64,000 nt of DNA from Allodiplogaster sudhausi (lineage: Eukaryota > Nematoda > Chromadorea > Rhabditida > Diplogasteridae), in the NCBI GenBank assembly GCA_945643635.1, contig CALZFC010000268.1, forward strand, positions 937,501 to 1,001,500, given 5' to 3'. This document shows, piece after piece, positions 20,246 to 49,677 of the stretch. A program made the translations under genes and the position numbers. How positions within the stretch are numbered: position 1 is the first letter of the stretch; each line of letters begins with the position of its first letter. The notes below the pieces were generated by a model, which was not told the DNA's origin, made no database searches, and saw only the letters and a program-made list of their open reading frames with translations.

Positions 20246-23200
20246 ATGGCGCCCTCTCGTGCTGCCTGCTCTCTTGCATTCTGCCTCTTCGTGCTCGCGC
20301 TTCTTCATTCGACTTCCGCCAGCGCTTGCAAACGCAACACGATATATGTATGTAATTATGTTCTTTAAATTTCTCAACTTTCTTCAATTAGTTCCTGGGA
20401 GTACTATTATGCAATGTCCTTTGATGGAATTTCAGCGAAAGTTATCCGCTCTGAATCCAACGCTGGCTTATTTGAACTACTAGCTTTAGACATCTCATTT
20501 AACGGTGATCTCATTCGCGTCCTTACTGTATATCGCGCTCCGTCCGCATCCGCTGAAGGCAATTCTATTCTTATAAAATCACTCCGAGATCTCAGTACTT
20601 GCCCGCAGCCATCCATATTGCTAGGTGATTTCTACTATCCTGACCTTTACTGGTCGCTCCCTTCCCCACCCCAGGTCGGCAGTCCTTCCCATCCCTCCAA
20701 ACTTTTTCTTGACTTTACTACCTCCTCTTTCTTTGCTCAGCTAACACCCTTCCTTACCTGTAACAACCACATCTTAGATCTCGTTCTGTGTAATACACCT
20801 AATCTTTTATCTTGTGTCAGGGTAGGCCCCCCATTTGCTTCATCGGATCACAATACTGTAACTTTTTCCCTCTCTTTATCATTCTCAGCACCATCATTTA
20901 CTTATGTTAAGGATTATTCTATGTGTGACTTTATGACTGCCAATTCATTTCTTCTTTCCTACGATTTCCCTTCATCTTTTTCCTCTGCTCGTGTCATAGA
21001 CACTATGTATTCTCAGCTTGTAAATGCCCTCCTCGCAACCGATTCTCTTTTTGTCCCCTATAAGAAGGTTAGCCTTCATGGTGAACGCCTTCCAGATCAT
21101 ATTCTACATTTACAACAGAAACGATACCGACTTTGGCTTGTCTCCCTCTCTAGCCATCCCGCTTCCTCCGATTCAGATTTTAAAAGTGTTAATGATCGCT
21201 ATAATAAGGCAGTTGAAAAATACGCCCATAATGTAGAAAAGCATATAATTCGATCTACGAATAATTCATTGTTTTTCCGATATATCCGTAATAGGACATC
21301 TTCTAAACCTCGTGGAGTTGATACACTTTCTAACGCTGCTGGTAACGACTGCTACTCTGATGTTGATAAGGCCGAACTCCTTGCTGAAACTTTTAGTAAT
21401 AGTTTCACCTTAGATAATGGTGTATTACCATCGCTCCTTCCTTCCTCCCCCCGTACTCCTTTTGAGTTTATCTTTGCAAGGCACGACATTTGTCGAGCTA
21501 TCGAGATTTGGCCAAATAGCTCATGTATTACTCCTGACCATTTCAACATTAGGTTCATTAAGAATTTGGCTATCCCAATTAGTAAAGCTCTGGAATATAT
21601 TTTTAATTTCTCCCTCAACTCTGGTACTGTCCCCTCTATCTGGAAGCATTCTATCGTAGTACCTATTAAGAAGAAATCACCCTTTTCAGATCCAACCAAT
21701 TACCGCCCAGTCTCCATAACTTGTATGTTTTCTAGGCTATTTGAAAAACTACTATGTCGTAGGTTGTCCGTATGATGTAATGACAATTACATTTTACCTG
21801 ACGAACAATTTAGTTTCCGCGCTAAACGTTCAATAGAATTCCAACTACTTGATAGTCTTGAACATTGGACCCATTCTCTACATATCGGAAATTGCACTGA
21901 CATTGTATATTTTGACCATGCTAAGGCATTTGACCGAGTAAGTCACAGTAAGCTCATTCATAAGCTTAAGAATTTCTCCTTTCCTGATATTATTATTCGT
22001 TGGTTAAGCAATTTCTTGTCTAATCGAACATTTTCTGTCCGAGTAGGCAAATCACTCTCCTCTCCTCGAACTGTTATTAGCGGTATCCCTCAAGGAACCG
22101 TCATCGGTCCCCTCCTCTTTATCCTTTATACTGCCGACCTCCCTCCCCTTGTTTCTGCCCGCGGCGCCAGCGCCCGCTGCTTTGCTGATGATCTTAAAAT
22201 TTTCTACTCTTTTCCACCTTCCCATCCCGCTCCTAACTTACAGGAAGCAATCAATGTTGTCTCTTCTTGGGCTGACTCCTGGCAGCTGTGTCTAAGGCGT
22301 ATCTAATTTTACGTTCTCTTCGCACTAGGAATAAAGATGTTTTAATTTCTGCATATACCATCTATGTTCGGTCAATTCTAGAAAACTGCACCACCGTTTA
22401 CTCCCCCTCTCTCTTAAAGGATATCCGTGTTTTAGAAAAAGTTCAGAACTATTTTACTCGTTTTGTATTTCGTCGATGTCTTGGTTACGCCGCTATTTCT
22501 CTCCCTTCTAGCGAAGAACGTAATCGCATTCTTTGTATTCCATCTCTGAAATCTCGTCGGGATGACAATGACTTTACACTTGCGCGTCGTTTTATCTTTG
22601 GTCATAGGAAAATTTGTTGTAAATACCCTCATCATTTTCATTTCAGTAATTCGCGAACGCGTGGCTTGTCATTCCAAGTTGTCTGCCCTACCGGCCGCAT
22701 TAAGGCACGATCCCACTCGTTCTTTGTTCGCGCCGCGAAGATGTTTAACTCAATTGCTAAGTCTACGACCTTTCCCCCCTCTATTATCTCTTCCAACCGC
22801 GTGCTCACTGCTGTCTCATGATATTACTGTGCCATTTATACAATTCTATCTGTTTGTTCCATATACTTTACATGTTTATTTTTCGCTAATTTCTACCCAC
22901 GTGTCACTCCGGTGCCGTAAATAAAGTATAAGTATAAGTATAAGGAAAGGCTTCTAACAGAAGTGAAGGGCTGCTAATTTTGAACTCCTTGAACAATCTT
23001 CAGCCCGACCCGACTTTAGACCAGAGTTGCACGCGGCCCGGGCCGGCTGGCCCTAATTTTAAAGGCCGTTATGGGCCCGGCCGAGCCGAGCCTATCCTTG
23101 GACCTGGAGCCCTATTGGGCCCGTTTTTCGCAGATTGGCTTTCATGCTCATTTTTAGGGTACTAATTGCTACAACTGGGACAATGGAAGAAAGTGCCATG

Positions 23201-24901
23201 AGCCATGCTACTTCTGGTCAACTGAAGTACTTCGATGCGTCCACAACTTTGGCAGCGATGGCAAGACATCGCAAGATTGCGAACGTGGCGTAGGCAAGAA
23301 AATCACAATCGGTTTGAATTTGTGTTAGACATATGTAGATAATACAAAAGGACAACATTTTAGTTATAACAAATGCGAATGGCATAATATATATATTTGA
23401 TATTAATTATGCAGATAACTAAATAGCTATGAATATCCACTTGAAGTTCGGATTTTAGAGTGGCAAAGAGGTCGTTCCTGGAACATAAAGGCAGTCTGCG
23501 GAGATGAGGACAATGACTGTCACCTCGACAAAGGAAATTATCCCGAAGCCTCTTCCAACATCATTGCTTTTCTTGCAGAAAGCCGCATGCAAAGCCAATC
23601 CGTCGGAATTTTGCATTTGGCTAACTTTGATCATGTTACAGCAAGAGTAAATTAAACTCAATACAATATTTTCTTTCCTTAGTATACTCTCACTATTAAA
23701 AAAACTTTGAGACAATATCAAGAAAATAATGATATGAAAAATCCATTCATTTTTCACAGGTGAAAGCGATTCTAAGTGGCGCATATCTCCCGTTCAATAG
23801 GTGAGCTTTTTTAATCATGAAAGTGCACAGTCGCAAATTATGGATTGGAAATAATAATAAAAAAAACATTTAACGTATGCAAAAGAATGAAATTTTTGAC
23901 CATTGATACACGAAATTGGTTTTGTTAAGGAATAGAAGATTAAATCAAACTAGCGACACCTAAACAATATCATCAGGAAATCTGCAGAAGTTTTGTTTTC
24001 ATTTGAAAAAGTATTGTTTAAATTAATTTCAGCACCACAACCACCACAACCACCACCACGACCACCACAACCACCACCACCACCACAACTACCACAACTA
24101 CAACAACTACCACAACTACCACAACTACGACCCCTTCTACGACCACGTTAGTGTCTTAAAGGAATGTTCTTTCTGATCACGGTAATTAATTTCATTCACA
24201 ATGAACATGCTCACACACATTACAGCCCGAGCAGCACATCTACCACCACCACCACCACAGAGCGCACGACGACATCCACTGCCATATGGAGGTGCCTGAA
24301 TTTTTTGTCATTTTCTTTTCTGCTTTCTCCTTTGCTCGGAAGTGAACGAAATGCCGTCTTTAACTTCCACCACTGCGTTTCAATCTTTCAATTATTCAAC
24401 AATTCTCGACTGCTATTTTCAAGAAGCGGCTTTCTGCCGTAAAGGAAATTGAATGGAAGTACGAATACCTTCAGCAAGGGGGAGCCGCTGCAATTTGAAA
24501 CTGAATTTACTTTCAGTGGTTGCTCTACTTTTAGCGCATGCTTACATATGTTCATTATACTCATTTTAGTGACGAGAATGGCGAAGGAAGTTCTACAGTG
24601 ACTGATGTTACGGAAGCAGAACTTTCCGACGACGACGATGAGTTATTAGTATTTAAAGTTAATCTCGATACGCAAAATTACTTGATTTAATTATTTAGCA
24701 AACTTCCATTTGAAGAGGCAAATTTATTTTAATTTAGTTTTAATTTCATCACTAATTTAATGTTTTTAAGGGCTCTATTAAGGCTTTGAACTTTTTTTAA
24801 GGTCTACTGAAGCCTGTTTCACAATCTACTTCGCCGTCCTCTTCTCTGAAATGTTCATTGCATCAATTACTTTCCTGCTCATTTACCCTTTTGGTATTTG
24901 A
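20246..24901 (+). CDS. Array unit A: Cys-rich ectodomain, long poly-Thr stalk, type 1 membrane tail
   Basis: Exons 20246-20347, 23158-23311, 23459-23634, 23760-23800, 24033-24146, 24226-24291, 24570-24671 and 24802-24901 total 855 nt (284 aa), all phases closing. A signal peptide (MAPSRAACSLAFCLFVLALL, then HSTSA) leads to the ectodomain NCYNWDNGRKCHEPC...CVHNFGSDGKTSQDC and AVCGDEDNDCHL. The linker VKAILSGAYLPFNR and about 35 mostly Thr residues follow, then an acidic exon (SDDDDELLVF) and the membrane tail IYFAVLFSEMFIASITFLLI. A retrotransposon and a GC-rich insert enlarge intron 1. The seventh exon ends AC|GCAAAA, so a GC donor is needed. Unit C has AG|GTGAAA there. AATAAA starts 2 bases after the stop codon. 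The family is not recognised. Confidence 0.72.
20430..22944 (+). mobile_element. 5'-truncated non-LTR (CR1/jockey-like) retrotransposon, inactive
   Basis: Encodes the C-terminal half of an AP-type endonuclease (LLGDFYYPDLYW, where LLGDFN is usual, and SSDHNTV). A reverse transcriptase follows, with TNYRPVSIT, YFDHAKAFDRV, GIPQGTVIGPLLFILYTADL and CFADDLKIF. An in-frame TGA lies at 21773-21775. Near 22290 a deletion with frameshift removes the segment after SWADSWQL. The 3' end is a (TATAAG)n-like tail at about 22928-22944. It inserted in the same orientation into intron 1 of array unit A, splitting sequence that is continuous in units C and E. Confidence 0.9.
23025..23150. repeat. GC-rich insertion next to unit A exon 2
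   Basis: GGCCCGGGCCGGCTGGCCC and GGGCCCGGCCGAGCCGAGCC occur here and in no other unit. It follows the ancestral acceptor position (GACTTTAG at 23013-23020), so the present acceptor TTTTTAG at 23151-23157 comes from the 3' edge of the insert. Confidence 0.6.
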
Positions 24902-25015
24902 TGAATAAAGTTATTCTGTTGAATTTATCTTCTTGTTGACAAAGATCAGGTAATCGTCATAAGAGGAGAATTAGTTCTTTGGCAAATACAAGAGAAAGAG
25001 AAATAGAGACCGGTG

Positions 25016-25053
<38 letters not shown>

Positions 25054-26170
25054 TGCGAAGGAAGGTGCAGGTGCTGCAAACTGAGAAGAAATCGTTGATC
25101 TAACGATATTCCCGAGCCCACCATCAGTATTGCTATGGGAAGGCAGTGGGGAAACAGTCCACACTGTCAAAGGAAAGGTATCATCGGCTTGCTCATAGTC
25201 GTCCGAAGTGTATTGCGGAAGCGTTTGACTGGGAGGTCCCATGTTCGATGCCCGGCCGAGAACATATTCTTGCCGCTCTCTAGAGAAATTTTTTTCCATT
25301 TTCTTGTCATTTACGCATAAACTAAATGAGAATCTCAAACAAAACAAAAGAACAGACTCAAAAACCTAGAACCACTCCAGAAAAAAATTTCTTTTGTAGT
25401 TTGTAGACCTGTCTGCTGGAGCCAGCTTCCTTCTCAGTCAGCAAAAATCACGACCAGGCCCGTGCTAAATGCAGTAAACTCCAAACATATGAGAATACAG
25501 TCATTTACGAATCTTTTTTGCAAAACGGACTTCACTGTCGTATTCTCCATATTCGAAATAGGTTACCACACAAGCGAAATGGCACGAAAACGCTTATTCA
25601 GCGAGCTATTCCAGTTCATATTATTTATATCAATATTATTAATATTATTAATATTATTAATATTATTAATATCGGACCCAATAATGTTGGGCGGGACTGT
25701 ACATAAAGGAGCCCTGTTTTGTTTTTGTCCTTGGAAACGATGGCATTTGGGAAAATTCAATGTTATTGTTGAAGGAAAACGAAGGTCGCGGCCAGGCATA
25801 AAAAAATAACGAAATGTAACACCCACAAACTTTCATGGATCAATATTCCCAGATGACAATCAAAGTGAATTGGAATTCCGCTAGACTAGGTTTCGCAAGC
25901 TGAAAAGTTGTGGTGAAGTTACGAAAGGCTTCAATAGACATATGCAAACCTTTTGAGAACCTGTATTTTTCGCTAAGAATAGTGAACTTTTCCCTTTCTT
26001 TCTCTCTCTTTTTCATTCTGCCCCACCCTTCACCCGCCTTTTTTTCTCAAGAATTTCCATCCGTGGAAGTCATAAGAGGAGAACAAAGAGCATTCCGAGA
26101 AATTGACTTTCATCGAAGAAACAAGATATTCCTAGACTGATCACTTGTCATTGTCCGTTTTTGCTCCAGA
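24902..26170. other. Intergenic after unit A
   Basis: The first ~60 bases after the stop codon match the 3' flank of unit C. Then a GA tract (25016-25052) and an (ATT)n run at 25625-25670. A tRNA-like stretch sits at 25195-25262 (GCGTTTGACTGGGAGGTCCC, then GTTCGATGCCC), with the anticodon region shortened. No gene seen. Confidence 0.5.
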
Positions 26171-26204
26171 AATCGCACAGCATAACAGGCAGCCGGCACT
26201 AATT

Positions 26205-26309
26205 GTAAGTGAAAAATAAGAGAGCTGCCGTCTTCTTTCTCGTCATTCTCTGTGCGGTGGTCGTGTAAGTTTGAAGAAATCTTTATGTTCTATTTAAGTT
26301 AAATTTATG

Positions 26310-26349
<40 letters not shown>

Positions 26350-26515
26350 GTATATGAATATATCAATGGATATATTGTATTTTAAGGTTCGCTGAGTGAG
26401 CCAAATGTAGAGAAGTGCCGCATCGCTGCGGAGAAGGCCGTTTCGAAGTAAAAGAAGAGAGCGGCAGAGGTTAAGCAAATTGGAAAAAATGCATTGTCGA
26501 GAAATGCATTCTAAA
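26205..26515 (+). pseudogene. Decayed small secreted peptide gene
   Basis: A signal-peptide-like exon reads NKRAAVFFLVILCAVVV with ATA in place of the expected start ATG and a donor GTAAGT at 26265. After about 115 bases, VEKCRIAAEKAVSK is followed by an in-frame TAA and then KKRAAEVKQIGKNALSRNAF with a stop codon, as if a Lys codon had become TAA. It looks like a small cationic secreted peptide of nematode type that has been lost. No other copy is seen in the window. Confidence 0.4.
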
Positions 26516-26589
26516 CCATGGTGTGAGTTTCGTATTATCTTAAAAAAATATATATATACAATAAGATAAAATAAACTATTTAAAAAATG

Positions 26590-27237
26590 TTTCTAGAAAT
26601 GAAACCATGGAAACGACCGATGGATATCTTTCGAACTCATATCAGGCAAAAAAGATGCAATTTCCAGAGTGAATTGTGGTTGTTTTATATTGAGAGCTGC
26701 AGTCATCAGCTCGCTTTTTTCAGAAAGGATACACAAGTTATATTAAAAGGCAAGGAAAATTTAACATCGCAGTCCATGAAACAGTGTCAGAATGAAACTG
26801 CTCAATTCAAATCGATAAAATGTTCCTATCGTGAGTGAAATTCAACGAATCGATTTAAGTACATTTGGCTTAATTTGAAAGAAACATGTGCTTTCTATTC
26901 TTTCTCATTTGAAAGGAATCATCTCATCGGAGTATGCAATGAAATAGCGAATTTTGACGATTGGATTCGGGGAAACTGGAAGACTCGGTTTCACAGCTTA
27001 TTTCAGCAGCCAGGCCAGCATCTGCCAACAAGGAAGGCAACAACCGTCCTCGAAGAACCAGCGAGGATAGAATGATTATGTATTAATGCGTGAAAAATAA
27101 GAATGCAAATAAAAAAGTGGCTATGCTAATGAGGGGACGGGCAGGCATGAAGGAAACGTGCGGAAGTGGATATTCCACTGCAGCAAGTTCGAAATAGATC
27201 AAAATGCAAAATTTTGTTCCAAAACAACGTGGAGAAA
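26590..27237. repeat. Upstream duplicated block of units B and E (copy 1)
   Basis: Closely matches 43290-43898, including TTTCGAACTCATATCA, GAATCATCTCATCGGAGTAT and CAGCCAGGCCAGCATCT. The open frames inside differ by stops and indels between copies, so this is shared flanking DNA, not coding sequence. Confidence 0.8.
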
Positions 27238-27310
27238 TTGCTCCGAAACTCATCATTCACCTGCGCTGCTTCTCCTGCGAGTGGTCGGCTCTCCGATCAG
27301 CTCTCGGGCT
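27238..27310 (+). promoter_or_regulatory. Conserved core upstream element of array unit B
   Basis: Same element as upstream of unit A, with TCTCCTGCGAGTGGTCGGCT in place of TGGCCTGCGAGTGGTCGCCT. Confidence 0.6.
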
Positions 27311-27360
27311 TTCTCTTTCGCTCTCTTTCTCTCCCCTCTCTCCTCGTCTCTCTTCCCCTG

Positions 27361-28969
27361 ATGGCGCCCTCTCGTGCTACCTGCTCTCTCGCATTCTGCC
27401 TCTTTGTGCTCGCGCTTCTTCATGCGACTTCCGCCGGAGAATGCCACCCACCCTTTAAAATTGGGTTCTTCAACATTGGGTTCTTCCAAGAGGTTTTCAT
27501 TTTCTCAACCATTTTGAATTTCCTCAATTGGTACTTCTTTAGTTAAAGGTGTCCTAACAGAAGGGAGAGGGCTACTAAGTTTGAACACTTATTACAAACT
27601 TCATCTCGACTTGACTTTTCGAATCGAAAATGCTTCAACTGGGACAATGGAAGCGTGTGTGACGAGCTATGCAAGGTTTTTTCCCAATATTTGCCCACAA
27701 ATTGCGTCCACTACATTCGCAGCGATGGCAAGAATTCGCAACAATGCGAGATGTTGGCATACAGAAAATTCGAAATTGGTTAGAATTTGTGATATTTTAC
27801 ACTATACATACATATATCTTAGATGTATGGCTGTATGAATGTCGGAATTTAGTGTGGAGCAACGGCCCTTTCGACAAGATGAGGGTGGTCTGCGGAGCAT
27901 CGAACGACAAAAGCTGCCAACTCGATATGAGAGAGTATCGCAATGCCACGGCCAACATCATTGCCTATCTTGGAGAAAGCCGCATGCAAAGCCAATCCGC
28001 AGGAACTTTTCCATTGGCTAACCTTGATCAGGTTACAGTAATACTAAATTAAACTTAGTACAATCTTTCTTGCTTCAGTATACTCTCATTATTAAAAAAA
28101 AAACTACTTTTAGAAGATGTCCAAAATAAAAATATGAAAAATCCTTTCATTTTTCACAGGTGAAAGCGATTCTTAATGGCACATATCTCCCGTTCAATAG
28201 GTGAGATTTTCTATCATTAAGGTATGAATTATGGACTGATGACGAAAAATAATTTGCATATAAAAAAATTAATTTCAGCACAACCACCACGAGCACTTCC
28301 AAGACCACGTTGGATTTCTTATTTTTATATTTTTATTCCAGTCATTTCCCGTCAATTTAGTTTTATACCCTATAAACAAAAGGAAACATTGCAGCCCAAC
28401 AACGACTTCCACCACTGAGCCAACGAAGACATCCACCGCCATGTTGGGAGTCTAAGAAGAATTTTTAAATTCATTTTTGTTCGATGAATTTTAAACACGA
28501 CGAACCAAGGAATAAATTGCAGCCCAAGCCCATGACGCACTGAGCCAATGACGACATCCACTTCCATGTACGGACATTAAAGAAGATTTTTTGTCGTATT
28601 TGGATCTTGCTCGAAATTTAGAGAAGGAAAATGAATAAAAAATATATCTTTTGTAAAGTCAGAAAAATACATAAGAGAGTTTAATGAAGAGAAAACATTA
28701 TCTGTGAAAATTCCCTATTTATGTTTTTAGCTCGTCCTTTCTGCAAAAAGTAGCGCTGCCGCATCTGAAGCCGATCTACACATTTCCCGTACGCTATAAT
28801 AATAATAATAGAAATGTTTACTTCTATGATAAAAATTGGTTTTCCTAAAGGATAATTCCCTTTAAAGTTCTTCTGGGTCGGTGTGGCCTTCTTCACTGTC
28901 GCCGTTCTGATTTCTCTGGCTGTTATTGTGCTTCAGTGCTGCGAGATCGATTCCGTTCTCACATCCTAA
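27361..28969 (+). CDS. Array unit B: Cys-rich ectodomain, Thr-rich stalk, type 2 membrane tail; one lost acceptor
   Basis: Exons 27361-27492, 27622-27778, 27853-28031, 28160-28200, 28279-28308, 28395-28442, 28731-28788 and 28868-28969 give 248 aa. The signal peptide is as in A. The ectodomain has FNWDNGSVCDELC...CVHYIRSDGKNSQQC and VVCGASNDKSCQL, then VKAILNGTYLPFNR and two Thr-rich exons. SSFLQKVALPHLKPIYTFP and the tail FFWVGVAFFTVAVLISLAVI complete it. The exon 2 acceptor reads TTTTCG where units C and E have TTTTAG, so this splice may fail. A further Thr-type exon (28523-28567) holds an in-frame TGA but is in phase 2-2 and can be skipped. The stop codon is followed at once by ATGAATAAA. 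Confidence 0.55.
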
Positions 28970-29418
28970 ATGAATAAAACTTGTTGTTTTTGTATGATTT
29001 CGAGACAGAGGCAAAAATTGATTTGGCTATCGAAGACAATACATTGTTGCTTAATGCTCGATTTGAACGGAAGCTTGTCGAGAAAAAAAAGTTATTTGAC
29101 ATATAAATAACGTTTTTTGTGTGAGACAAGAGATTTAAGAGAGCTCTCATCTTTCCCCCTTGAAAGAAACCAATCATCTCTTACCAAATAATTTCGGAGT
29201 ATGCAATGTAATAGGCATAGTCTGATGATAAGATGGAAGAGTGGGTTTCACGGTTTATCTCAGCTACCAGGCCTGCATCGACCATCAAAGAGGGGAAGCA
29301 ACCACTCACGAAGAGCGAGCGAGCTATAAATACAATGACTATAAATACAATGCGAGCAAACAAGAACGAAAAAAATGCATCAAAATGCAAAATAGTGCTC
29401 CAAAACAACGTGGTCAAA

Positions 29419-29511: not shown

Positions 29512-31549
29512 ATGGAGACCTCTCGTGCTACCTGCTCTCTCGCATTCTGCCTCTTTGTGCTCGCGCTTCTTCATGCGACTTCCGCCGGCGAATGTCACCC
29601 ACCCAAAACCTTACCCAGAAATACCCAGGAAATTGTAAGATTTTTTTTCTTCAAATATTCCTAATTTTCTCAAATCGTACCCTGGGCACTATTATTCAAT
29701 GCCCTATCGGGGAGGGAAGCCCTAACAGAAAGGGAAGTGCTCGTACTTTTGAACGCCTATTACAAACTTGATCCCGACTTGACTTTTAGATTGTTTCATG
29801 CGTCGACTGGGACAATGGAAGTCGGTGTGAAGAGCGCTGCAATAAGCTGCCAGAGAAATACGGAAATTGCGTCCACTACATTTACAGAAATGGCAAGACA
29901 TCGCAACAATGCGAACGCGGCGCACTCAGAGAATTCACAATAGGTTATAATTTGCGATAATCATATTTTGCACTTCTTCACATATACATAAATAAGAGTA
30001 AACGCCAACGTTTACAATAATAAAATTTGGGAATGACGGAATATTTAAATTACCATTACTTGTAAAGACAACATGAGAAACTATCGCGAGGCAATTACCA
30101 ACATCATTGCCTATCTTGGAGAAAGCCGAATGCAAAGCCAATTCGCCGGAAAGTTGCCTTTAGATGGCTTTGATCAGGTTATAGAAACAATAAATTAATT
30201 AATGTACACCATTTTGCTTCACTAGTAAACGGTAATTTTGTAAAATAAAATTTTTAAATAACTTTATCATAATGTATAAAATTAAAATTAAAAACTCCAG
30301 TCATTTTTCACTGGTTAAAGCGATTCTAAACGACACATATCTACAGTATAATACTAGGTGATCTTTTTAATCATGAATGTACACAACCATGAATTATGGC
30401 TTGAAAATAAGATAAAAAAGATTTTTGCATTTTAGTATTACGATAAAGAATAGAATAAAGAGTGAAAAACAAAAGCTATCGCGCCACCTCAATAATCTCA
30501 GCAGGTAATGTTCAGGCGTTTTAGCTATGTATATTAGAAACATTGCAGCTCAACGCCGACCGCGACCAGTACAACCGAAACTTCCACTGGGCCAACGACG
30601 ACATCCACTGCTATGCTGGAGAGACTAAGAAGATTTCTTTTTCTTTTTTTCGAATTTTTAAATTTTTTATTGAGAAATATAAAATTTGCGAGACTCATGT
30701 GGGCTAGAGTAATAATTGCATGAATCTAGTGCCACTACGTGACTTATGAAAAGAGTAAGGGATGAGATACTAGTCACGTAGAGATAACTTGAACAACAAA
30801 CAACACTGTAGCTTAAAGCTTTCTCTAAAGCAACTAAATTGCAGCCCAACAACGACCACGACCAGTTCAACTACAACCATCACCGTGCCAATGACGACAT
30901 CCACTACCACGTGGGAGAGTCTAAGAATATTTAGTTATTAATCAACGGCTTGCGTGCATTCTCGGAATTGAAAAAAAAAATGCCGACTTCGACTTCCACC
31001 ATAGAGTCTTACAACAATTCCTTTATAATTCATTGAGTTGTCCAATGATTTTCGAAGAAGCGCCGATATTAGACATCGGACTTGTAAACCACACTCTAAT
31101 CCTCGATTGCTATTTAAAAGCAGCGGATTTCTGCCATAAACGAAATAGCACAAATGAAGGAGTACTCCTTCAGCGGAGGGATAGTCGGAATTTGAATTGA
31201 ATTTCTTTCTTTTCGGTGGTTGCCCAACTTCTTAGCCTTTTTATCTGTGCACAGTATACTTATTTTAGAGACGAGAATGACCAAGTTGTCGACGACGACG
31301 AAGAATTGTTCGAATTTGAAATTTATCTTGATAGGTGAAATTAGTTGATCGAATTATCTAGCGAATTTTCGTTTCGAGAGGCAAGTTTAAGTGAATTTAA
31401 TTTTAATTTCATCACTAATTTAGTTTTTATGGGCTTGAAACTTTTTCAGGTCCACTGAAGCCTGGTTCGCAATCTACTTCGCCGTCCTCTTCTCTGAAAT
31501 GTTCATTGCATCAATTACTTTCCTGCTCATTTACCCTTTTGGTATTTGA
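29512..31549 (+). pseudogene. Array unit C: degenerate copy with type 1 membrane tail
   Basis: Exon 1 (29512-29634, METSRATCSLAFCLFVLALL) and exon 2 (29790-29943, VSCVDWDNGSRCEERC...CVHYIYRNGKTSQQC) are intact. The first half of exon 3, with its two cysteines, is replaced by unrelated sequence, leaving only NIIAYLGESRMQSQ near 30100. The exon 4 acceptor reads CACTG instead of CACAG. Thr-rich exons follow at 30549-30614 (donor GC) and 30845-30910, then an acidic exon at 31269-31334 (VVDDDEELFEFEIYLD) and the tail at 31450-31549 (IYFAVLFSEMFIASITFLLI). The last exon and its 3' flank are nearly identical to unit A, pointing to recent conversion. Confidence 0.7.
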
Positions 31550-38900: not shown

Positions 38901-39160
38901 TTTGTGTTCTTTGATTAATGTAATGGGTGGAGCTTGGGATACGGAAGTGAGAGATTATAGAGAAAGAGAGAAATGGACGTGGCTTAGAGATCCGGAAGAG
39001 TGATTCATTGTTAAGTCTGTCTCCTTGAAGTGTGGTTGTTTGTTTGAGAGAGAGATATAGATTTAGATAGTGACGTCATTTAGTTACATGTATGTATGTG
39101 AGTCATTGTGATTACGAAATGTGGGCGGAGCTTAATTACGTTGCGTTACGTTACTACGTT

Positions 39161-39290
39161 ACGTTAGGGGCGGGTCCTATTTACGTTAGGGGCGTGGCCT
39201 ATTTACGTTAGGGGCGGGGCCTATTTACGTTAGGGGCGGGGCTTATTTACGTTAGGGGCGGGGCCTATTTACGTTAGGGGCGGGGCTTAT
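39161..39290. repeat. 22-bp minisatellite, six units
   Basis: Unit ACGTTAGGGGCGGGGCCTATTT with variants GGGTCC, CGTGGCC and GGGCTT. The last unit is cut at 20 bases. Each unit holds a GGGGCGGGGC (GC-box-like) core. Confidence 0.95.
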
Positions 39291-39548
39291 ACGGAACACA
39301 AACTATAATCACAAACTACAATGATCACAACACAAAGCACAAAGATCACATTCTGGTCACCAAGACCCCCACTATCATCATCATATGCTTATTTTGAAGA
39401 TATTATCGAGCTGTATAAGATATTTGATTTTCATTAACTATGAATGCTAATGAGGAGACGAGCATGGATGAAGTATGCGTGTGGAATGGGATATTTCTCT
39501 ACAGCAATGGCGAAATGAGCGTTAATTCTCCAAAACAACGTGGACAAA

Positions 39549-39620: not shown

Positions 39621-39653
39621 TGTCTCCCTCTCGCTGCTCCCTTCGTCTCTCTG

Positions 39654-41524
39654 ATGGCGCCCTCTCGTGCTGCCTGCTCTCTGCCATTCTGCCTCTTTGT
39701 GCTCGTCCTTCTTCATTCGACTTCCGCCGGCAAATGCCACCCAGCCGCGACTCCACTTGTTTGGTGGATCGAAGCTGTAAGAATTTTCTGCACACATATT
39801 CCTAATTTTCTAAAATTACACCCAAAGCACAATTATTCAGAGTGCCCTTCAGGGGAACAGAAGGTGAACGCAACAAATTTTGAACGCCTACAACAAACTC
39901 GAAATTTTGAACGCCTACAACAAACCCGATTTGAATTTTAGGTTACTTCCTGCGTCGACTGGGACAATGGAAATCGTTGTGAGGAGAAGTGCACGTTGTT
40001 CGCGAGAGGCGACAAACACTGCGTGCACTACATTCACGGTGACGGCAAAACATTGCAAGAGTGCGAACGAAGCGTATCCAATGAAGTCGTAATAGGTTAG
40101 AATTTGTGATAATAATATTTTGCACTATGTCACGCGAACACAGGCAATAAAAGGACAAAAATTCCGTTGAGAATGTTTCATGTTGCATTCTCAAAAAGGC
40201 TCAAAATAGCTGTGAATTTCTATATGAATTTCGCAATTTAGAGTATCGCAACGGTAGTTTCTACAACATGAAGGCAGTCTGCGGAAATAGCGACAATGAC
40301 TGCTATCTCGACATGAGAGAATATCCTAACGCCACGGACAACATCAATGCATATCTTGGAGAAAGCCTCCGCCAAAGCCAATCCAACGGAACCTTAATTT
40401 TCGAAGACTTTTATGAGGTTGTAGAAGCACTAAATGAATTAATGTAGACCAGTTTGTTTTGACTATTAAATGGTAATTAAGAACAAATTTATTAAAATAA
40501 CTATAACCTAATGTTTAACTATTTTAATATGTCAAATGATTTCGATTTTCACAGGTGAAAGCGATTCTAAATGGCACGTCACCACCATATAAGAGGTGAA
40601 CTTTTTAATGAGGTAGAAGGCATCCACGAATGATGGATTGAAAATGAAAAAAAATTCGCCGTAAGCAAAGAAGAAAATGGATGATGCAGTCTGAGGTGAA
40701 AGTTAAAACACCAAAAAATAATGGTTTTGAAATTAGGAAATACATTTGAAGAATAGAGGCTAAAAGTAATCCATCACCACCTCAACAATCTAATCACAAA
40801 GTGTTCAGGCGTTTTATCATCAGAAAAATAATGAAAATTAAATTTTTTTAAAAATTAATTTCAGCACAAGCACCACCAACACGCCTGCGAGCACTTCCAC
40901 GACCACGTTAGTGTCTTATTTTTCTTCCAGTCGTCTTCCGTCAAATAGTTTTATTCACTATAAACAAAAGAGTACATTTCAGCGCAACAACGACTTCGGC
41001 CAGAACAGCAACCACTGATCCAATGAAGACATCCACCGCCATGTTGGGAGTCTTTCTTTTTTAAAGTCATTTTTGATCGACGAGTTTTAATCACAATGAA
41101 CCAAAGGGTAACCTTCAGCATACTCGTTTTCGCTCTTGCTCGAAATGTAATGAAACTTTTGAAAAACTTCATATCGCTTCGTAAAGTCAAATAAATACAA
41201 AAGAGAGTATAATGAAATACAAATATTTATGTTTTATATACGAAAATTCAAATATTTATGTTTTTAGCTCGTCCTTTTCGCTAGAAGAAGCGCTACCCCA
41301 TATGAAGCCGATTTACACGTTTCCCGTATGTAGAATTGCTTACGATAATTTTAGAAGATAATATTTTATCCTATAATTTTACTAGAATATTACAAAATAC
41401 TAAAGGAACCTTCCATTTTCAGTTCTTCTGGGTGGGCGTGGCCTTCTTCGCTGTCGCCGTTCTGATTTCTCTGGCAGTCATTGTGCTTCAGTTCTGCGAA
41501 ATCGATTCCGTTCTCACTTCCTGA
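39654..41524 (+). CDS. Array unit D: intact Cys-rich, Thr-stalk membrane protein (type 2 tail)
   Basis: The reference member: exons 39654-39776, 39942-40095, 40242-40417, 40555-40595, 40865-40906, 40983-41042, 41268-41325 and 41423-41524 give 251 aa, all with GT-AG junctions. A signal peptide (MAPSRAACSLPFCLFVLVLL, then HSTSA) leads to GKCHP. Exon 2 is SCVDWDNGNRCEEKC...CVHYIHGDGKTLQEC and exon 3 is MKAVCGNSDNDCYLDMREY, with NAT and NGT sequons. The mature part has eight cysteines up to the linker VKAILNGTSPPYKR. Two Thr-rich exons (STSTTNTPASTSTT and TTTSARTATTDPMKTSTA) form a mucin-like stalk, followed by EEALPHMKPIYTFP, the membrane helix FFWVGVAFFAVAVLISLAVI and a short tail CEIDSVLTS. 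It is predicted to sit on the cell surface. AATAAA starts 4 bases after the stop codon. The family is not recognised. Confidence 0.85.
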
Positions 41525-43289: not shown

Positions 43290-43898
43290 GAATGCTCTTT
43301 CGAACTCATATCAAGCAAAAAGGCGCAATTGCCAGAGTGAATTGTGGTGCTTTATATGGAGAGCTGCAGTCATCAGCTTTTTTCAAAAGGATATACACGT
43401 TTTATAAAAGAAAAACCAAAATTAGGATAGCTGTCCATGAAACAGTGTCAAAATGGAACTGCTCAATGCAAATCGATAATATGTTCCTTGGCGAACGAAA
43501 TTCATCGAATCGAATTAAGCAGATTTGGTCTATCATGAAAAAACATGCGCTTTCTATTCTTTCTCATTTGAAAGGAATCATCTCATCGGAGTATGCAATG
43601 AAATAACGAATTTTGACGATTGGATACGGGGAAACTTGAAGACTCGGTTTCACAGCTTATCTCAGCAGCCAGGCCAGCATCTACCAACAAAGAAGGCAAC
43701 AACCACCCTCGAAGAACCAGCGAGGAGAGAATGATTATGTATTAATGCGTGAAAAATAAGAATGCAAATAAAAAAGTGGCTAAGCTAATGAGGGGACGGG
43801 CAGGCATGAAGGAAACGTGTGGAAGTGGATATTCCACGGCAGCAAGTTCGAAATAGGCATCAAAATGCAAAATTTTGTTCCAAAACAACTTAGAAACA
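43290..43898. repeat. Upstream duplicated block of units B and E (copy 2)
   Basis: Partner of 26590-27237, same orientation, with small indels. Confidence 0.8.
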
Positions 43899-43975
43899 TT
43901 GCTCCGAAACTCATCATTAACCCGAGCTGCCTGGCCTGCGAGTGGTCGGCTCTCCGATCAGCTCTCTGGCTTTCT
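43899..43975 (+). promoter_or_regulatory. Conserved core upstream element of array unit E
   Basis: TTGCTCCGAAACTCATCATT, CCTGCGAGTGGTCGGCTCTC and CGATCAGCTCTC are present, matching unit B at the diagnostic GGCT position. Confidence 0.6.
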
Positions 43976-44023
43976 CTGCCGCTCTCTTTCTCTCCCTTCT
44001 CTCTCCTCGTCTCTCTTCCCCTG

Positions 44024-45731
44024 ATGGCGCCCTCTCGTGCTACCTGCTCTCTCGCATTCTGCCTCTTTGTGCTCGCGCTTCTTCATGCGACTTCCGCCGG
44101 CGAATGCCACCCACCCTTCATTCGCGGCGTTATTGGCGGAATCTTCGCAGATGTAAGAATTTTCTTCAGATATTCCTAATTTTCCCAATTGGTTCTCCGG
44201 TGCACTCTTATTCAATGCCCTTTAGTAGGGGGGGGGGTTCTAAAGGAAGGGACTGCAAACAATTTTGAACGCGCACAGCAAACTTCATCCCGACATGACT
44301 TTTAGGTTTCTGAATGCCGGGGAAAATGGTGTAAGGATATCTGCGCTTGGTTGTCATTCGAAACCGAAGATTGCGTCCACAACATCGACAGCAATGGCAA
44401 GAGATCAAAACACTGCATCAGCGGCTTTGATGATACGATAATCAAGATTGGTTAGAATTTTTAGCAATAGCATGTTTCACTGTATTTCGTATGCACGCAT
44501 ACATACTAGTCAAGGACAACAATTATTGTTATAACATTTGTGAATGATGGAGTCTTAATGTTTTCCATTAATTTTCTGCTGTATTCTAAAAAAAAATAGA
44601 GGTATGAATGTCTTAATTTAGTCTGGCGCGACGGTCGTTTCTTGAATCTGAAGGTAGTCTGCGGAGTGAAAGAAAAGGACTGCTACCTCAACATCATCGA
44701 GTATCCCAACGCGACTTCCAACATCCTTGCCTACCTCGGAGAAAGCAGCATGCAAAGCCAATCCGCAGGAACTTTTCCATTGGCTAACCTTGATCAGGTT
44801 ACAGTAGAACTAAATTAAACTCAGTACAATCTTTATTGTTTCAGTATACTATCATTATAAAAAAAACTACTTTTAGAAGATGTCCAAAATAAAAATATTA
44901 AAAATCCTTTCATTTTTCACAGGTGAAAGCAATTCTTAATGGCACATATCTCCCGTTCAATAGGTGAGATTTTCTATCATTAAGGTATGAATTATGGACT
45001 GATGACGAAAAATAATTTGCTTAAAAAAAAATAATTTCAGCACAACCACCACGAGCACTTCCAAGACCACGTTGGATTTCTTATTTTTATATTTTTATTC
45101 CAGTCATTTCCCGTCAATTTAGTTTTATACCCTATAAACAAAAGGAAACATTGCAGCCCAACAACGACTTCCACCACTGAGCCAACGAAGACATCCACCG
45201 CCATGTTGGGAGTCTAAGAAGAATTTTTAAATTCATTTTTGTTCGATGAATTTTAAACACGACGAACCAAGGAATAAATTGCAGCCCAAGCCCATGACGC
45301 ACTGAGCCAATGACGACATCCACTTCCATGTACGGACATTAAAGAAGATTTTTTGTCGTATTTGGATCTTGCTCGAAATTTAGAGAAGGAAAATGAATAA
45401 AAAATATATCTTTTGTAAAGTCAGAAAAATACATAAGAGAGTTTAATGAAGAAAAAACATTATCTGTGAAAATTTACTATTTATGTTTTTAGCTCGTCCT
45501 TTCTTCAAGAAGAAGCGCTGCCGCATCTGAAGCCGATCTACACATTTCCCGTACGCTATAATAATAATAATAGAAATGTTTACTTCTGTGATAAAAATTG
45601 GTTTTCCTAAAGGATAATTCAATTTAAAGTTCTTCTGGGTCGGTGTGGCCTTCTTCGCTGTCGCCTTTCTGATTTCTCTGGCAGTCATTCCTCTTCAGTG
45701 CTGCGAGATCGGTTCTGCTCTCACTTCCTGA
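44024..45731 (+). CDS. Array unit E: Cys-rich ectodomain, Thr stalk, type 2 membrane tail
   Basis: Exons 44024-44152, 44306-44450, 44622-44797, 44923-44963, 45041-45070, 45157-45204, 45493-45550 and 45630-45731 give 242 aa with all phases closing. Exon 2 (SECRGKWCKDIC...CVHNIDSNGKRSKHC) has lost the WDNG motif and is the most diverged in the array. Exon 3 has VVCGVKEKDCYLNIIEY. From the end of exon 3 on, the gene is nearly identical to unit B, including the optional exon at 45285-45329 with the same in-frame TGA. The tail is FFWVGVAFFAVAFLISLAVI. The poly(A) hexamer is AATACA here. A run of ten G lies in intron 1 (about 44226). Confidence 0.8.
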
Positions 45732-46441
45732 ATGAATACAGCTTCTTGTCGATTTGGCTATCGAAGACGATATATTGCTTAATGCTCGATTTAAACGAAC
45801 ACATGTCGAGACACACAAAAAGGTGTTTGATATATCATATAGCGTTTCTTTTTTGTGTTTCATGAATGTTACGAATGGCTGACAATGAGTGATAGGTTAG
45901 CTCGCCTTCAAATAAAATTCTCCTTTCTGTAGAAAGACAAGAGTTATGTTCTCCAAACTGTTACGCCGTCTCTACAATGCTATTTAACCGATCCTGAAGA
46001 ATTAACACATTCGATTGTAAGCTAGATTCCTAACATTAGAATGAATCGTAAACAAGTAGCACAATGTAAATACATTGAACGAGTTCTCGGAACGCTTAAG
46101 TGATAGACGATGAATTGATTTAGTGTTTTAGATTTATACAGCTTCCTCAATAGGTTTGCTGGCATTGAGAATGCAGAAATAACCACCACAAAAAAATCTA
46201 TTCAGTCGATTCAGTGTAAGATCATTCCGAAGAGCAAAGTTAAGCTAAGTTAAATCCACTCACTCCCTAGTTGAAGTCGAAATTTGCGATGCCTGGGGCA
46301 GCACACGTAAGAATACGAAGAGAAGTAGCATTTCTTCAGCAAGTAGTGTAGAATAGTATTGATAAAATAAATATTTAATCACATTACTATTATTATTATT
46401 GCGCAAAAGCAAATTACGAGGAAAACCAAGATTTGAATTTC
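45732..46441. other. Intergenic between units E and F1
   Basis: Starts with the shared 3' flank (GGCTATCGAAGACGATATATTG...GTCGAGACA). No exon 1 or exon 2 of the family can be found before F1, so the 5' end of that unit is missing. Confidence 0.55.
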
Positions 46442-47666
46442 TGAATTTAGAGTGGCGAGACGGTAGTTTCTGGAACATGAATGCAGTCTGCGGAGAGGAT
46501 AAATACGACTGCTACCTGAACATCGCAGAGTATCCCAACGCGGTGTCCAACATCAATGCCTATCTCGGTGAAAACTGCATGCAAAACAAATCCGATGGAA
46601 AGCTACCTCTGGCAAACTTTGATCAGGTTGTAGAAGCATATAAATAAATTAATGAAGACTATTTTGTTTCACAAGTAAGCGTTAATAAAAAAAGATAATT
46701 AAAATAACTTTAACCTAATGTAAAAAAAAGTAAAAGTAAAGAATCCATTCGTTTTTCACAGGCTAAATCGATTCTAAATGGCACGTCCCCACCGTATAAG
46801 TGGTGGGTGAGCTTTTTAATCATGGAGGTACACAACCACGATTTATAGATTGAAGACGAAAAATAATTTGTCGTTTTATTTTCATCAGAAAAATAATATA
46901 AATTAAATATTTTAAATTATTATTTCAGCACAACCACCACCACGCCAACCAGCACTTCCACGACCACGTTAGTTTCTTATTTTTCCTTCCAGTCATCTTC
47001 CGTAAAATAGTTTTCTTCATTTTAAAGAAAACTGTACTTTGCAGCGAAAGAACGACTACGGCCAGTACAGCAACCACAAGCACTAAGCCAATGAAGACAT
47101 CTACTGCCATGTTGGGAGTCTAATTAGAATTTTTTAAAGCCATTTTTGGTCAATGAATTTTGATCACAATGAACCAAAGTGTAAATTGCAGCAAAACAAC
47201 GGCCTTGACCGCTGCAACTACCACCACCGCTGAACCATTGACGACGTCCACTTCCATGTATGGACATCAAGAAGTGTTTTTCGTCTATCGCTCTTGCTCG
47301 AAATTTACAGAAGGACAAATCGATTTAAAAATACGTATCGCTTTGTATAGTCCAATAAATACAAAAAAGATTATAATGAATATAAAAATATTATCTACAA
47401 AAATTCACTATTTATGTTTTAAGCTCGTCCTTTCTGCAAAATCTATACGTTTCCCGTAAGCGCAAATGCTTAAATTATATTTGAAGATAATTATATTATC
47501 CTAACCTAATTATAATGTGATAAAATTGATTTTCAACCCCATTGAAGGATTTTCCCCTTTAAAGTTCTTCTGGGTCGGCGTGGCCTTCTTCTCTGTCGCC
47601 GTTCTGATTTCTCTGGCATTCATTGCGCTTCAGTGCTGCGAGATCGATTCTGCTCTCACTTCCTGA
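46442..47666 (+). pseudogene. Array unit F1: exons 3 to 9 only
   Basis: Begins after TTTAG with EWRDGSFWNMNAVCGEDKYD in exon 3, then AKSILNGTSPPYKW. Three Thr-rich exons follow, including an open version of the exon that carries a stop codon in B and E (TALTAATTTTAEPLTTSTS). The next exon is shortened to TCGTCCTTTCTGCAAA joined to ATCTATACGTTTCCC, which leaves one extra base and a frameshift. The final exon (FFWVGVAFFSVAVLISLAFI) is intact. No signal peptide exon is found, so this is a remnant. Confidence 0.75.
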
Positions 47667-48358
47667 ATGATAAAGCTTGTTGTTTTTGTATGATTTCGAA
47701 CAGAGACAAAAATTCATATTGCTTAGTGCTCGATTTAAACCTACAGTAGCTCATTGGATTAAGGGTGTTCTCTCTCTTTGTGGATACGATTCGTACGGAT
47801 CCCTTTTTGTAGAAAGACAAGAGATTTAACAGCAACACCTATTGATAGAAGCGAATCTTAATCGATCAATGAAACATGAGAGAAAAAAGGCGATAGAAGC
47901 CGATGGACGAGAATTTGAGATAAACTGAGAGACGACTTGTATGTATGTCTGAGCTTCTCCCTTAGAATCCATCAGAAGGGTAGGTCGTATAAAAAAATAT
48001 TTAGCTATCGAAGACAATACATTATTGCTCAATGCTCGATTTGTTCGGAAGCTTGTCGAGACAAAAAAGGTGTTTGACATATCAATAACTTTTTTGTGGT
48101 TGTCATGAATGATACGAACGGCTGAGTTAAATGTTGGCTCGCCTTTTAAATCCAATTCCCTCTTTTTTTGAAAACAGACAAGAGATATAACAGCAAGACT
48201 TTATTAGTAGAAGCGATTTAATCGATCAATGAAACGTAACAGTAAAAGGCAGATGGAAGCCTGGACGAGAACTTGAGATCAACTGAGAATTTGAGAACAG
48301 CAAAGCTGAACTGAGCATGAAAATGAAGACCTTGTCTCAAAACGAGCTCACGTAGCAA
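47667..48358. other. Intergenic with duplicated 3' flanks
   Basis: Holds two relatives of the array 3' flank (AGACAAGAGATTTAACAGCA at 47815 and AGACAAGAGATATAACAGCA at 48176; GACGAGAATTTGAGAT at 47908 against GACGAGAACTTGAGAT at 48262). This shows a further local duplication ahead of F2. Confidence 0.5.
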
Positions 48359-48430
48359 GATTGCCTTGAAACTCATCATTATCCCGAGCTGCTTGGCCTG
48401 CGAGTGGTCGCCTCTGCGATCAGCTCACGG
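48359..48430 (+). promoter_or_regulatory. Diverged core upstream element of array unit F2
   Basis: TTGCCTTGAAACTCATCATT and CCTGCGAGTGGTCGCCTCTG, with several changes from the A/D form. Confidence 0.55.
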
Positions 48431-48507
48431 GCTGTCTCTGTCGCTCTCTCACTCTCTCTCTCCCTCTCCCCTCCCTCCCATCTCTCTCTCCTTTCTCTCT
48501 TCCTCTG

Positions 48508-49677
48508 ATGGCGACCTCTCGTGCTGCATGCTCTCTGACAGTGTATCTCTTCCTGGTCGCGCTTCTTCATGTGACATCCGCCGGCAAATGCTACCACGTA
48601 CCCAAGTGGGGGCTTGTAGAACAAGTAATAATATTCGTCAATTACTCCAAACTTTCTCAATTAGTTAGATCGTGTGATATTATTCAGTGCCCGTTGGTAG
48701 AAGGAATTCTTACTGAACCGTGAGAGCAACTAATTTGGAAGTCTTACTTCAATCTTCATGCCGACTTGACTTGTAGGATGTTACATGCTACAACTGGGAA
48801 GAAGGAAGCACTTGCGACGAACTCTGCTCGTTTCGGCTCGGATTTCCTGACAGATATTGCGTCCACATGTTGTACAGCGATCGCAACACATCGCAACGCT
48901 GCGAATACGACGAATCAGAGAAAATCACGATTGGTTAAAATTTGTAATAATAATATTTTGCACAACATCACGTACATGCATGTAGATAAGTAATGACTGC
49001 AATTATACTTGTAACATTGAAAAAAAATTCAGATTTTTTTTATTTGCTATTAATTATGCTGAATAAAGGTATTTCTGCTATATTTGTAAAGGCTCAAAAA
49101 TATTTGTAAAAAAAGATATCTGTGTGATTGTCAAATTGAGAGTGGCGCGACGGCCGCTTCTTGAACATGGAGACAGTCTGCGGTTCGAAGAACGACTGCT
49201 TCCTCAACATCACAGAGCATCCCAACGCCACGTCCAACATCAATGCATTTCTTGGAGAAAGCCGGATGCAAAGCGAATCCAACGGAACCTTGACACTGGC
49301 TGACTTTTCTGAGGTTGCTGAATAGCTCTAGATTAATTTCAGTACACAATAATTTTGTATTTAAAATAAAAATAAAACAAAGTGCAAAGTATGTCCGGCT
49401 AAATGTTAGAAAAAAAATCTTTCCATTTTATAGGTGATTGTGGTTCTAAAGGGCGATTATCTGGCGTATAACACGACTAGGACCGCGTTAGCTTCTTAAA
49501 AGAATATAGTTTTTATGATAAAGTAATTACTTATCTTGAAGTCATTTTTCATCATTAGTTTTCTTCATAATGAGACAACAAAGGCTTTACTGCAGCTCAG
49601 CAACGACTTTATCAAAAGCCACGAATTGGCTGGCTGTACTTCTCGCGTCCTTCTACATTCTCTTGAATTACCTCTGA
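48508..49677 (+). CDS. Array unit F2: short member with a hydrophobic C-terminus and almost no stalk
   Basis: Five exons (48508-48624, 48777-48933, 49141-49313, 49434-49486, 49596-49677) total 582 nt, 193 aa, phases closing. The signal peptide is MATSRAACSLTVYLFLVALL, then HVTSA. The ectodomain has TCYNWEEGSTCDELC...CVHMLYSDRNTSQRC and TVCGSKNDCFLNITEHPNAT. The linker exon runs straight into the remains of the first Thr exon (YNTTRTA). The last exon reads SATTLSKATN followed by WLAVLLASFYILLNYL and a stop. A hydrophobic end with no cytoplasmic residues fits either a GPI-attachment signal or a simple tail anchor. The exon 3 acceptor is TTGAG, not TTTAG. Confidence 0.75.

What the first reader, a model, noticed from the sequence alone, without database searches (positions are those of the whole stretch)
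20246..49677. Seven-unit tandem array of an unrecognised, apparently nematode-specific surface protein family
Seven units in the same orientation share a signal peptide exon (MAPSRA.CSLAFCLFVLALLH), a two-exon ectodomain (W..G..C...C...CVH......G....C, then VCG...DC.L), a linker exon and Thr-rich exons before a membrane segment. The mature ectodomain and its cysteines are kept while surrounding residues vary strongly. Signal, Cys-rich head, mucin stalk and anchor suggest a cell-surface recognition, adhesion or glycocalyx family expanding locally. I match it to no family that I know.
Basis: partly seen in the sequence, partly recalled or inferred. Interest (0 to 1): 0.92.

Follow-up and report, generated by a model that had tools for sequence, protein, structure and literature searches.

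The report
Nematode surface proteins with shuffled heads
A roundworm genome carries a cluster of genes for probable sugar-coated surface proteins whose tips match no catalogued protein domain and appear to be swapped between neighbouring genes, which would be a way of making many different surface tips.

Summary
The array is real: seven same-strand units at 20246-49677, six with a signal exon. Eight exons with matching phases give the 251-aa protein at 39654-41524. It is less tidy than described: D and E have GT/AG borders throughout (E only if one stop-bearing Thr cassette is skipped), G has a weak acceptor, B a lost one, A a LINE in intron 1, C lacks the first third of exon 3, F lacks the signal and first head exon. 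Anchors come in three kinds.

Pfam, NCBIfam, PDB and two protein-database searches gave no credible relative. The genome is a nematode's (SL1, SL2 RNAs) and holds at least 66 matches to the signal exon.

New: units B and E are 92% and 98% identical on the two sides of the disulfide head but 65% within it, introns included, so heads have moved as segments. Distant paralogues have ten cysteines in Ly6/uPAR order; the window heads lack exactly C7-C8. Other Ly6 signatures fail and the structure prediction failed, so a three-finger fold stays a hypothesis.

Best reading: membrane-tethered, probably O-glycosylated recognition or decoy proteins whose heads diversify by segment exchange. Ligand, tissue and expression are unknown.

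The parts
20246..24901 (+). Unit A: e1 20246-20347 (signal + Cys), LINE in intron 1, e2 23158-23311, e3 23459-23634, e4 23760-23800, Thr exon e5 24033-24146, Thr exon near 24226-24285 (its donor not resolved), type-2 anchor exon 24802-24901 (read by eye)
   Evidence: anchor 97% identical to that of unit C
20430..22943 (+). Non-LTR retrotransposon (endonuclease and reverse transcriptase pieces, frame interrupted) inserted in intron 1 of unit A
   Evidence: Pfam PF14529 and PF00078; absent from contig C175 at 123502-123505
27361..28969 (+). Unit B: e1 27361-27492, e2 to 27778 (usual acceptor lost; nearest in-frame AG gives 27580), e3 27853-28031, e4 28160-28200, e5 28279-28308, e6 28395-28442, e7 28731-28788, e8 28868-28969; cassette e6b 28523-28567 has an in-frame TGA
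27456..27960 (+). Head segment of unit B that differs from unit E (65% identity; flanks 92% and 98%)
29512..31549 (+). Unit C: e1 29512-29634, e2 29790-29943, exon 3 truncated at its 5' end, type-2 anchor exon 31450-31549; probably not functional as a complete head
39654..41524 (+). Unit D, complete 251-aa gene: e1 39654-39776, e2 39942-40095, e3 40242-40417, e4 40555-40595, e5 40865-40906, e6 40983-41042, e7 41268-41325, e8 41423-41524
   Evidence: GT/AG at every junction, phases 0,1,0,2,2,2,0
44024..45731 (+). Unit E: e1 44024-44152, e2 44306-44450, e3 44622-44797, e4 44923-44963, e5 45041-45070, e6 45157-45204, e7 45493-45550, e8 45630-45731 (e6b 45285-45329 carries TGA; 242 aa if skipped)
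46451..47667 (+). Unit F: fragment from exon 3 (46451-46626) onward, Thr exons and type-1 anchor; no signal exon or exon 2 found; end read by eye
48508..49677 (+). Unit G, 193 aa: e1 48508-48624, e2 48777-48933, e3 49141-49313, e4 49434-49486, e5 49596-49677; ends in a short, moderately hydrophobic tail (NWLAVLLASFYILLNYL), possibly a GPI signal
   Evidence: KD19 peak 1.46; GPI reading is inference

Best explanation
These are genes for small surface glycoproteins: a cleaved signal peptide, an ~80-105-residue head with eight cysteines (probably four disulfides), a Thr/Ser-rich stalk, probably O-glycosylated, made of interchangeable phase-2 cassettes, and a membrane anchor. The head works as an exposed recognition or decoy module. 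In the tandem array, head segments (from just after the signal peptide to the middle of exon 3) are moved between units by unequal exchange or gene conversion, while signal/upstream region and stalk are homogenised, so new heads appear on a constant display platform. Shown from sequence: architecture, family size, segmental mosaicism. Inferred: O-glycosylation, surface exposure, disulfides, a three-finger-like fold, and recognition as the function.
For: In 31 of 60 exon-3 places in the loci held, all four exon-2/exon-3 borders were found in the expected phases, 30 of them without a stop; the commonest are ttttag| (13 of 31), G|gttaga (15), atttag|AGTGG (15) and CAG|gttaca (11) (the script looked for GT/AG near the expected ends). 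The five units with an assembled head (A, B, D, E, G) each have eight cysteines in the mature head, and the KD19 peak of B, D and E is 2.6-3.0. Stalk Thr+Ser+Pro is 54-95%. Family size: 66 signal-exon matches on 23 contigs (94 candidates scored) and, by hand count of the rows listed, about 88 exon-3-type places on 26 contigs. B against E: 5' part 753 of 819 columns identical, head 317 of 484, exon-3 end plus stalk 807 of 826, anchor 266 of 299; Fisher head against flanks p=1e-54, columns taken as independent. Introns 1 and 2 inside the head segment (65%, 73%) are as diverged as its exons (50%, 62%, 70%), so a segment was exchanged; codon selection alone would not do this. E's head matches C175 units at 80-82%; B's exon 2 is nearest unit C (75%), while B's 5' part, stalk and anchor are nearest E; A and C share a 97% anchor but unlike heads. 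Ten-cysteine paralogues; C7 and C8 both present in 5 of 32 heads, both absent in 27, one alone in 0.
Against: No transcript, protein or population data. Several units are damaged, so birth-and-death without selection for diversity would give a similar picture. dN/dS between close heads: 20 pairs passed the identity cut among 30 heads; 9 exceed 1 (one with no synonymous change), 11 lie below 1, lowest 0.29; no significance test was run. B's exon 3 is within the window still nearest E (80%). Unit G's tail is only moderately hydrophobic (1.46). The structure model was unusable (pLDDT 50, pTM 0.29). C1-X-X-C2 fails and the final CN is rare; no profile detects three-finger homology. The five heads with C7/C8 come from one region, so the joint absence may be a single event; three other heads lost single cysteines, and V1 and V2 lack C3.
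Confidence: 0.5

Rival explanations
1. Structural glycocalyx or apical-matrix mucins: the stalk matters, the heads are only folded caps under weak constraint, and the mosaicism is neutral recombination within a tandem array.
For: B and E are nearly identical in stalk and stalk or anchor blocks are often the best conserved between units; 11 of 20 close head pairs have dN/dS below 1 and none was shown to exceed 1 significantly; in the two C18 stretches read, distant paralogues look like multi-domain Thr-rich proteins; several units are damaged.
Against: Cysteines and a head motif persist in 24 aligned heads at 27-51% identity to unit D, which neutral caps would not need; unit G has almost no stalk (13 residues).
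Confidence: 0.3
2. Membrane-tethered three-finger (Ly6-like) modulators of receptors or channels, each unit with its own partner, as known for Ly6 proteins of other animals.
For: Ten-cysteine order in distant paralogues and the C4-x6-C5 spacing of the two V-type heads; absence of C7/C8 is also reported for one domain of schistosome SmLy6D (PMC4492491, passages); one head gave a sub-threshold DUF753 hit, 0.072, a family recalled as three-finger-like.
Against: C1-X-X-C2 not met, CN ending in 4 of 50 exon-3 pieces; no PF00021 hit; no usable fold.
Confidence: 0.2
3. Largely a decaying array: most units are pseudogenes, with few expressed copies.
For: Units C and F incomplete, B with lost acceptor, G with weak acceptor, A with LINE, stop in e6b of B and E; on C175 a signal exon directly adjoins stalk sequence with the head missing.
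Against: D and E have open frames with GT/AG borders (E with e6b skipped) and G is open too; 30 of 60 paralogue places examined splice without a stop across the head.
Confidence: 0.15

Closest known systems
Ly6/uPAR (LU) three-finger domain proteins (PF00021; human CD59, C. elegans ODR-2, schistosome SmLy6)
   Same: Small Cys-rich extracellular domain of matching length, membrane-tethered; distant paralogues have ten cysteines in LU order, and the window heads lack the C7/C8 pair, as reported for the first domain of SmLy6D (PMC4492491, passages read).
   Different: No C1-X-X-C2, CN ending rare, C9-C10 usually too long, about 30 more coded residues of exon 3 after the last cysteine, mucin-like stalk, TM anchor; no profile match.
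ET module (PF01684, recalled as a nematode Cys-rich extracellular module)
   Same: Nematode, Cys-rich, extracellular; a C-x-C near the end in the distant heads (recalled likeness).
   Different: No hit in the head scans against Pfam; none in the genome search, whose control did not ring either.
Schistosoma mansoni polymorphic mucins (SmPoMuc; PMC2576457, abstract and section list seen)
   Same: Mucin-type multigene family whose members frequently recombine.
   Different: Fluke, not nematode; no homology tested or claimed; an analogy only.
TGM family of Heligmosomoides polygyrus (PMC10516467, passages read)
   Same: Lineage-restricted nematode Cys-rich modules, each domain coded by two exons.
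   Different: CCP-like multi-domain proteins with 4 or 6 cysteines per domain; no relation shown.

Membership tests
Ly6/uPAR (LU) domain | Eight or ten conserved cysteines (PMC4492491) | tested here: met
   Eight in 5 of 5 assembled window heads (A, B, D, E, G); ten in the C18 distant heads counting the Cys of the preceding Thr exon. That they are the same positions as in LU domains is not shown
Ly6/uPAR (LU) domain | C1-X-X-C2 spacing | tested here: not met
   First to second head Cys separated by 9 (A), 14 (G), 16 (D), 18 (E) and 33 (B) residues (positions)
Ly6/uPAR (LU) domain | Last cysteine followed by Asn | tested here: not met
   1 of 32 aligned heads; 4 of 50 distinct exon-3 pieces; none of the window units A, B, D, E, G
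Ly6/uPAR (LU) domain | C8-C9 separated by 0-1 and C9-C10 by 3-5 residues | tested here: not met
   C8-C9 spacing 1 in 5 of 5 heads that have both; C9-C10 is 6, 7, 6, 6, 5 in A, B, D, E, G, so 1 of 5 in range
Ly6/uPAR (LU) domain | Domain length about 60-110 residues | tested here: met
   First to last head Cys span 79, 105, 86, 85, 84 residues in A, B, D, E, G
Ly6/uPAR (LU) domain | Profile match PF00021 | tested here: not met
   None (24 heads) or 39 (4 distant heads); whole-genome search also empty but its control did not ring
Ly6/uPAR (LU) domain | Three-finger fold | tested here: inconclusive
   AlphaFold2 model of unit A head with intron read through: pLDDT 50.3, pTM 0.29
Ly6/uPAR (LU) domain | Disulfides 1-5, 2-3, 4-6, 7-8, 9-10 (from the cysteine numbers in PMC4839075) | not testable with these tools
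   Only joint presence/absence of C7 and C8 seen: both 5, neither 27, one 0 of 32; one head lost C3 yet keeps the N-terminal Cys
ET module PF01684 | Profile match | tested here: not met
   genome search empty, control silent
Mucin-type glycoproteins | Thr/Ser/Pro-rich O-glycosylation stretch | tested here: met
   Stalk T+S+P 0.95 (A, partial), 0.60 (B), 0.57 (D), 0.60 (E), 0.54 over 13 residues (G); glycosylation itself not tested

The most novel reading that the evidence does not exclude
A nematode repertoire system: tethered three-finger-like heads on mucin stalks, diversified by cassette exchange of the whole disulfide core between tandem units and haplotypes, serving individual-level recognition of microbes, hosts or conspecifics, comparable in logic to recombining recognition families of other animals.
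Probability: 0.12. Interest if true: 0.85.

Novelty: new variant of a known kind. Interest (0 to 1): 0.5.

Why it matters
If the heads bind something, this is an unlisted animal surface family with at least 66 signal-exon matches in one genome and a visible way of making new binding heads on a constant stalk and anchor. Exchange by segments, with introns carried along, can be tested directly by sequencing several individuals, and the cysteine-order hypothesis by one structure. It would add a nematode case to the animal surface families that diversify by recombination. If the heads bind nothing, it is a lineage-specific mucin expansion of ordinary interest.

Tried and rejected
Profile and PDB scans gave only weak hits that I judge to be chance: eleven families over 24 heads, best LPD15 0.025, Adeno_terminal 0.031, GF_recep_IV 0.038 and DUF753 0.072 (one head; recalled as three-finger-like, so noted under the Ly6 rival); BDV_G 0.06; LIC_14007 0.15; an insecticidal crystal protein 0.78; urokinase protease domain 0.038; antibody heavy chains 0.012. 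Two searches of 5.8 billion proteins returned none at E<=10; I do not know how many nematode proteins that database holds. Genome searches with PF00021 and PF01684 were empty, but their controls did not ring, so they say nothing. The idea that C175 is simply the other haplotype stays open: ribosomal L22 gives two places (C92, C240), ribosomal S8 one, and the DNA at window 55900-57600 only one full copy. Positive selection was not tested for significance. In one search the exon-2 row of unit B was read in the wrong frame and its values are discarded. Paper searches showed no paper on such a family in their listings (one returned none at all); that is no proof of absence from print.
Full report
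OBSERVATION. The seven same-strand units are real. Direct-repeat search recovers six signal-exon regions, seven exon-3 regions and shared Thr and anchor exons; self-BLAST gives unit-to-unit matches down to E=0. Unit D (39654-41524) assembles into 251 aa with GT/AG borders at every junction and phases 0,1,0,2,2,2,0. Unit E gives 242 aa if one Thr cassette is skipped, and G 193 aa. The rest are imperfect. A has a LINE in intron 1 (endonuclease and reverse transcriptase hits). B has lost its usual exon-2 acceptor. C has lost the first third of exon 3, including the VCG cysteine, with an in-frame TAA just upstream of what remains. F has no exon 1 or 2. B and E share a Thr cassette with an in-frame TGA that must be skipped, which the phase-2/phase-2 borders allow. 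G's exon-3 acceptor is weak. Anchors are of three kinds: type 1 (B, D, E, F), type 2 (A, C; 97% identical to each other) and a short terminal hydrophobic tail in G (KD19 peak only 1.46).

ORGANISM. The genome (351.8 Mb, 382 contigs) carries tandem genes with the SL1 leader and an Sm-like site. The SL1 RNA model gives 26 matches, none over the curated cut-off (50 candidates scored), and the SL2 RNA model 17 matches, all over the cut-off (48 scored). It is a nematode; that SL2 points to Rhabditina is recalled knowledge. The species was not identified, so free-living or parasitic is unknown.

FAMILY. The signal exon is matched at 66 places on 23 contigs (94 candidates scored, lower bound), including all six in the window. 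The head query gives 151 matches (list cut), of which by hand count about 88 are exon-3-type places on 26 contigs, some of them of the distant type. Of 60 exon-3 places in the loci held, 31 could be given all four borders and 30 of these have no stop. The commonest borders are ttttag|, G|gttaga, atttag|AGTGG and CAG|gttaca. A second array on C175 (112-147.5 kb) matches the window: of 111 pieces of 200 bases or more, the 21 at 82% or better reach 82-90% and include DNA between units; it lacks the LINE and differs in unit order and heads. It may be another haplotype or a duplication; tests were mixed.

DISTANT PARALOGUES. Relatives with heads of a second type lie at C18:5.68-5.78 Mb, C175:22-55 kb, C262:0.43-0.50 and 0.87-0.90 Mb and on a few other contigs. 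In the two C18 stretches that I read (L049, L050) the same exon scheme recurs, and head exons repeat between Thr-rich exons, so multi-domain mucin-like genes are likely there. These heads have ten cysteines, the first in the Thr-rich exon. Two further heads (V1, V2 in L049) have eight in the exons found, with C-x6-C, C-x13-C and C-x-C-x2-C spacings.

HOMOLOGY. No credible hit: Pfam for one chain, 24 heads and four distant heads; NCBIfam for three proteins; PDB; 5.8 billion proteins twice. The best sub-threshold hits are listed under Tried and rejected and I regard them as chance.

FOLD HYPOTHESIS. Human LU domains pair cysteines 3-26, 6-13, 19-39, 45-63 and 64-69, that is 1-5, 2-3, 4-6, 7-8, 9-10 (PMC4839075, passages). 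A schistosome Ly6 domain naturally lacks C7 and C8, described there as the fifth disulfide (PMC4492491, passages). In 32 aligned heads here, C7 and C8 are both present in 5, both absent in 27, and never one alone. The five come from one region, so this may be one event. Against: C1-X-X-C2 fails, C10-N holds in only 1 of 32 heads and 4 of 50 exon-3 pieces, C9-C10 is usually too long, three heads lost single cysteines, one of which keeps its supposed partner, V1 and V2 lack C3, and the AlphaFold2 attempt, possible only with an intron read through, was unusable. I put a three-finger fold at roughly 0.4 to 0.45.

MOSAICISM. Aligning B (26627-29123) with E (43296-45857): upstream region plus signal peptide 92% identical, head segment 65%, exon-3 end plus stalk 98%, anchor 89%; Fisher p=1e-54 with columns taken as independent. 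The drop starts right after the signal peptide (about 27450) and ends inside exon 3 past its two cysteines (about 27970). Introns 1 and 2 within the segment are as diverged as its exons, so a segment has been replaced. Nearest relatives differ by block: within the window, B's 5' part, stalk and anchor are nearest E, its exon 2 is nearest C (75%), and its exon 3 is nearest E again but at 80% (C175:142.1k at 84% overall). E's head is nearest C175 units at 80-82%. A and C share an anchor but not a head. On C175 one E-type signal exon adjoins stalk sequence directly, with no head. Direction, timing and mechanism (gene conversion or unequal crossing-over) are not resolved.

SELECTION. In pairs of window units the anchor exon e8 has dN/dS of 0.10-0.38 (three pairs); exons 2 and 3 range from 0.30 to 1.14 over 25 pairs (B exon-2 rows discarded for a frame error), so the ranges overlap slightly. 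Among 20 close pairs of 30 heads, dN/dS ranges from 0.29 to 2.5, with one pair having 8 replacement and 0 silent changes; 9 exceed 1 and 11 do not. This shows weak constraint in the heads and does not show positive selection; no significance test was run.

MECHANISM. Signal peptide and anchor place the head outside the cell (inference from standard topology); the Thr-rich stalk is a candidate for O-glycosylation, and N-glycosylation sequons occur in the heads of B, D, E and G but not in A's. A constant platform with exchangeable disulfide heads fits recognition, decoy or self/non-self roles better than enzyme or channel roles, but a plain glycocalyx with neutral caps remains a serious rival.

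COMPARISON. It works like recombining polymorphic mucins (SmPoMuc, PMC2576457, abstract read), without being one, and perhaps like Ly6 proteins, without meeting the Ly6 membership tests. I file it as a new variant of a known kind: a mucin-stalked Cys-rich surface family, probably lineage-restricted, on which my paper searches found nothing.

Noticed in passing
window 20430-22943: A LINE with endonuclease and reverse transcriptase pieces sits in intron 1 of unit A; the matching place on C175 is empty, so the insertion is absent from that copy.
   Followed up: partly
G000 C9:407271-407354 and 409239-409322: The two best genome matches to the signal exon lie on a contig where the listed head matches show no head exon; the signal exon may be shared with other genes.
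   Followed up: no
G000 C27:1593891-1595020 and C35:2590981-2592082: In both places a distant exon-3-type head match lies within about 1 kb of an SL2 RNA gene; perhaps a duplicated block, unexplained.
   Followed up: no
L039-L042: SL1 RNA genes in arrays, period near 452 bases in L039-L041 and less regular in L042; leader canonical but the whole scores about 31 bits below the Rfam cut-off.
   Followed up: partly
G000 C175:127861-129097: A signal exon directly followed by stalk sequence, head missing: a natural head-deleted unit.
   Followed up: partly
window 39150-39300: Short GC-rich direct repeat (taggggcggggcc-like) just upstream of unit D.
   Followed up: no
window 24574-24700 and 31269-31340: Units A and C carry an acidic exon-like stretch (SDDDDELLVF, VVDDDEELFEFE) before the type-2 anchor (read by eye); not seen in the type-1 units.
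   Followed up: no
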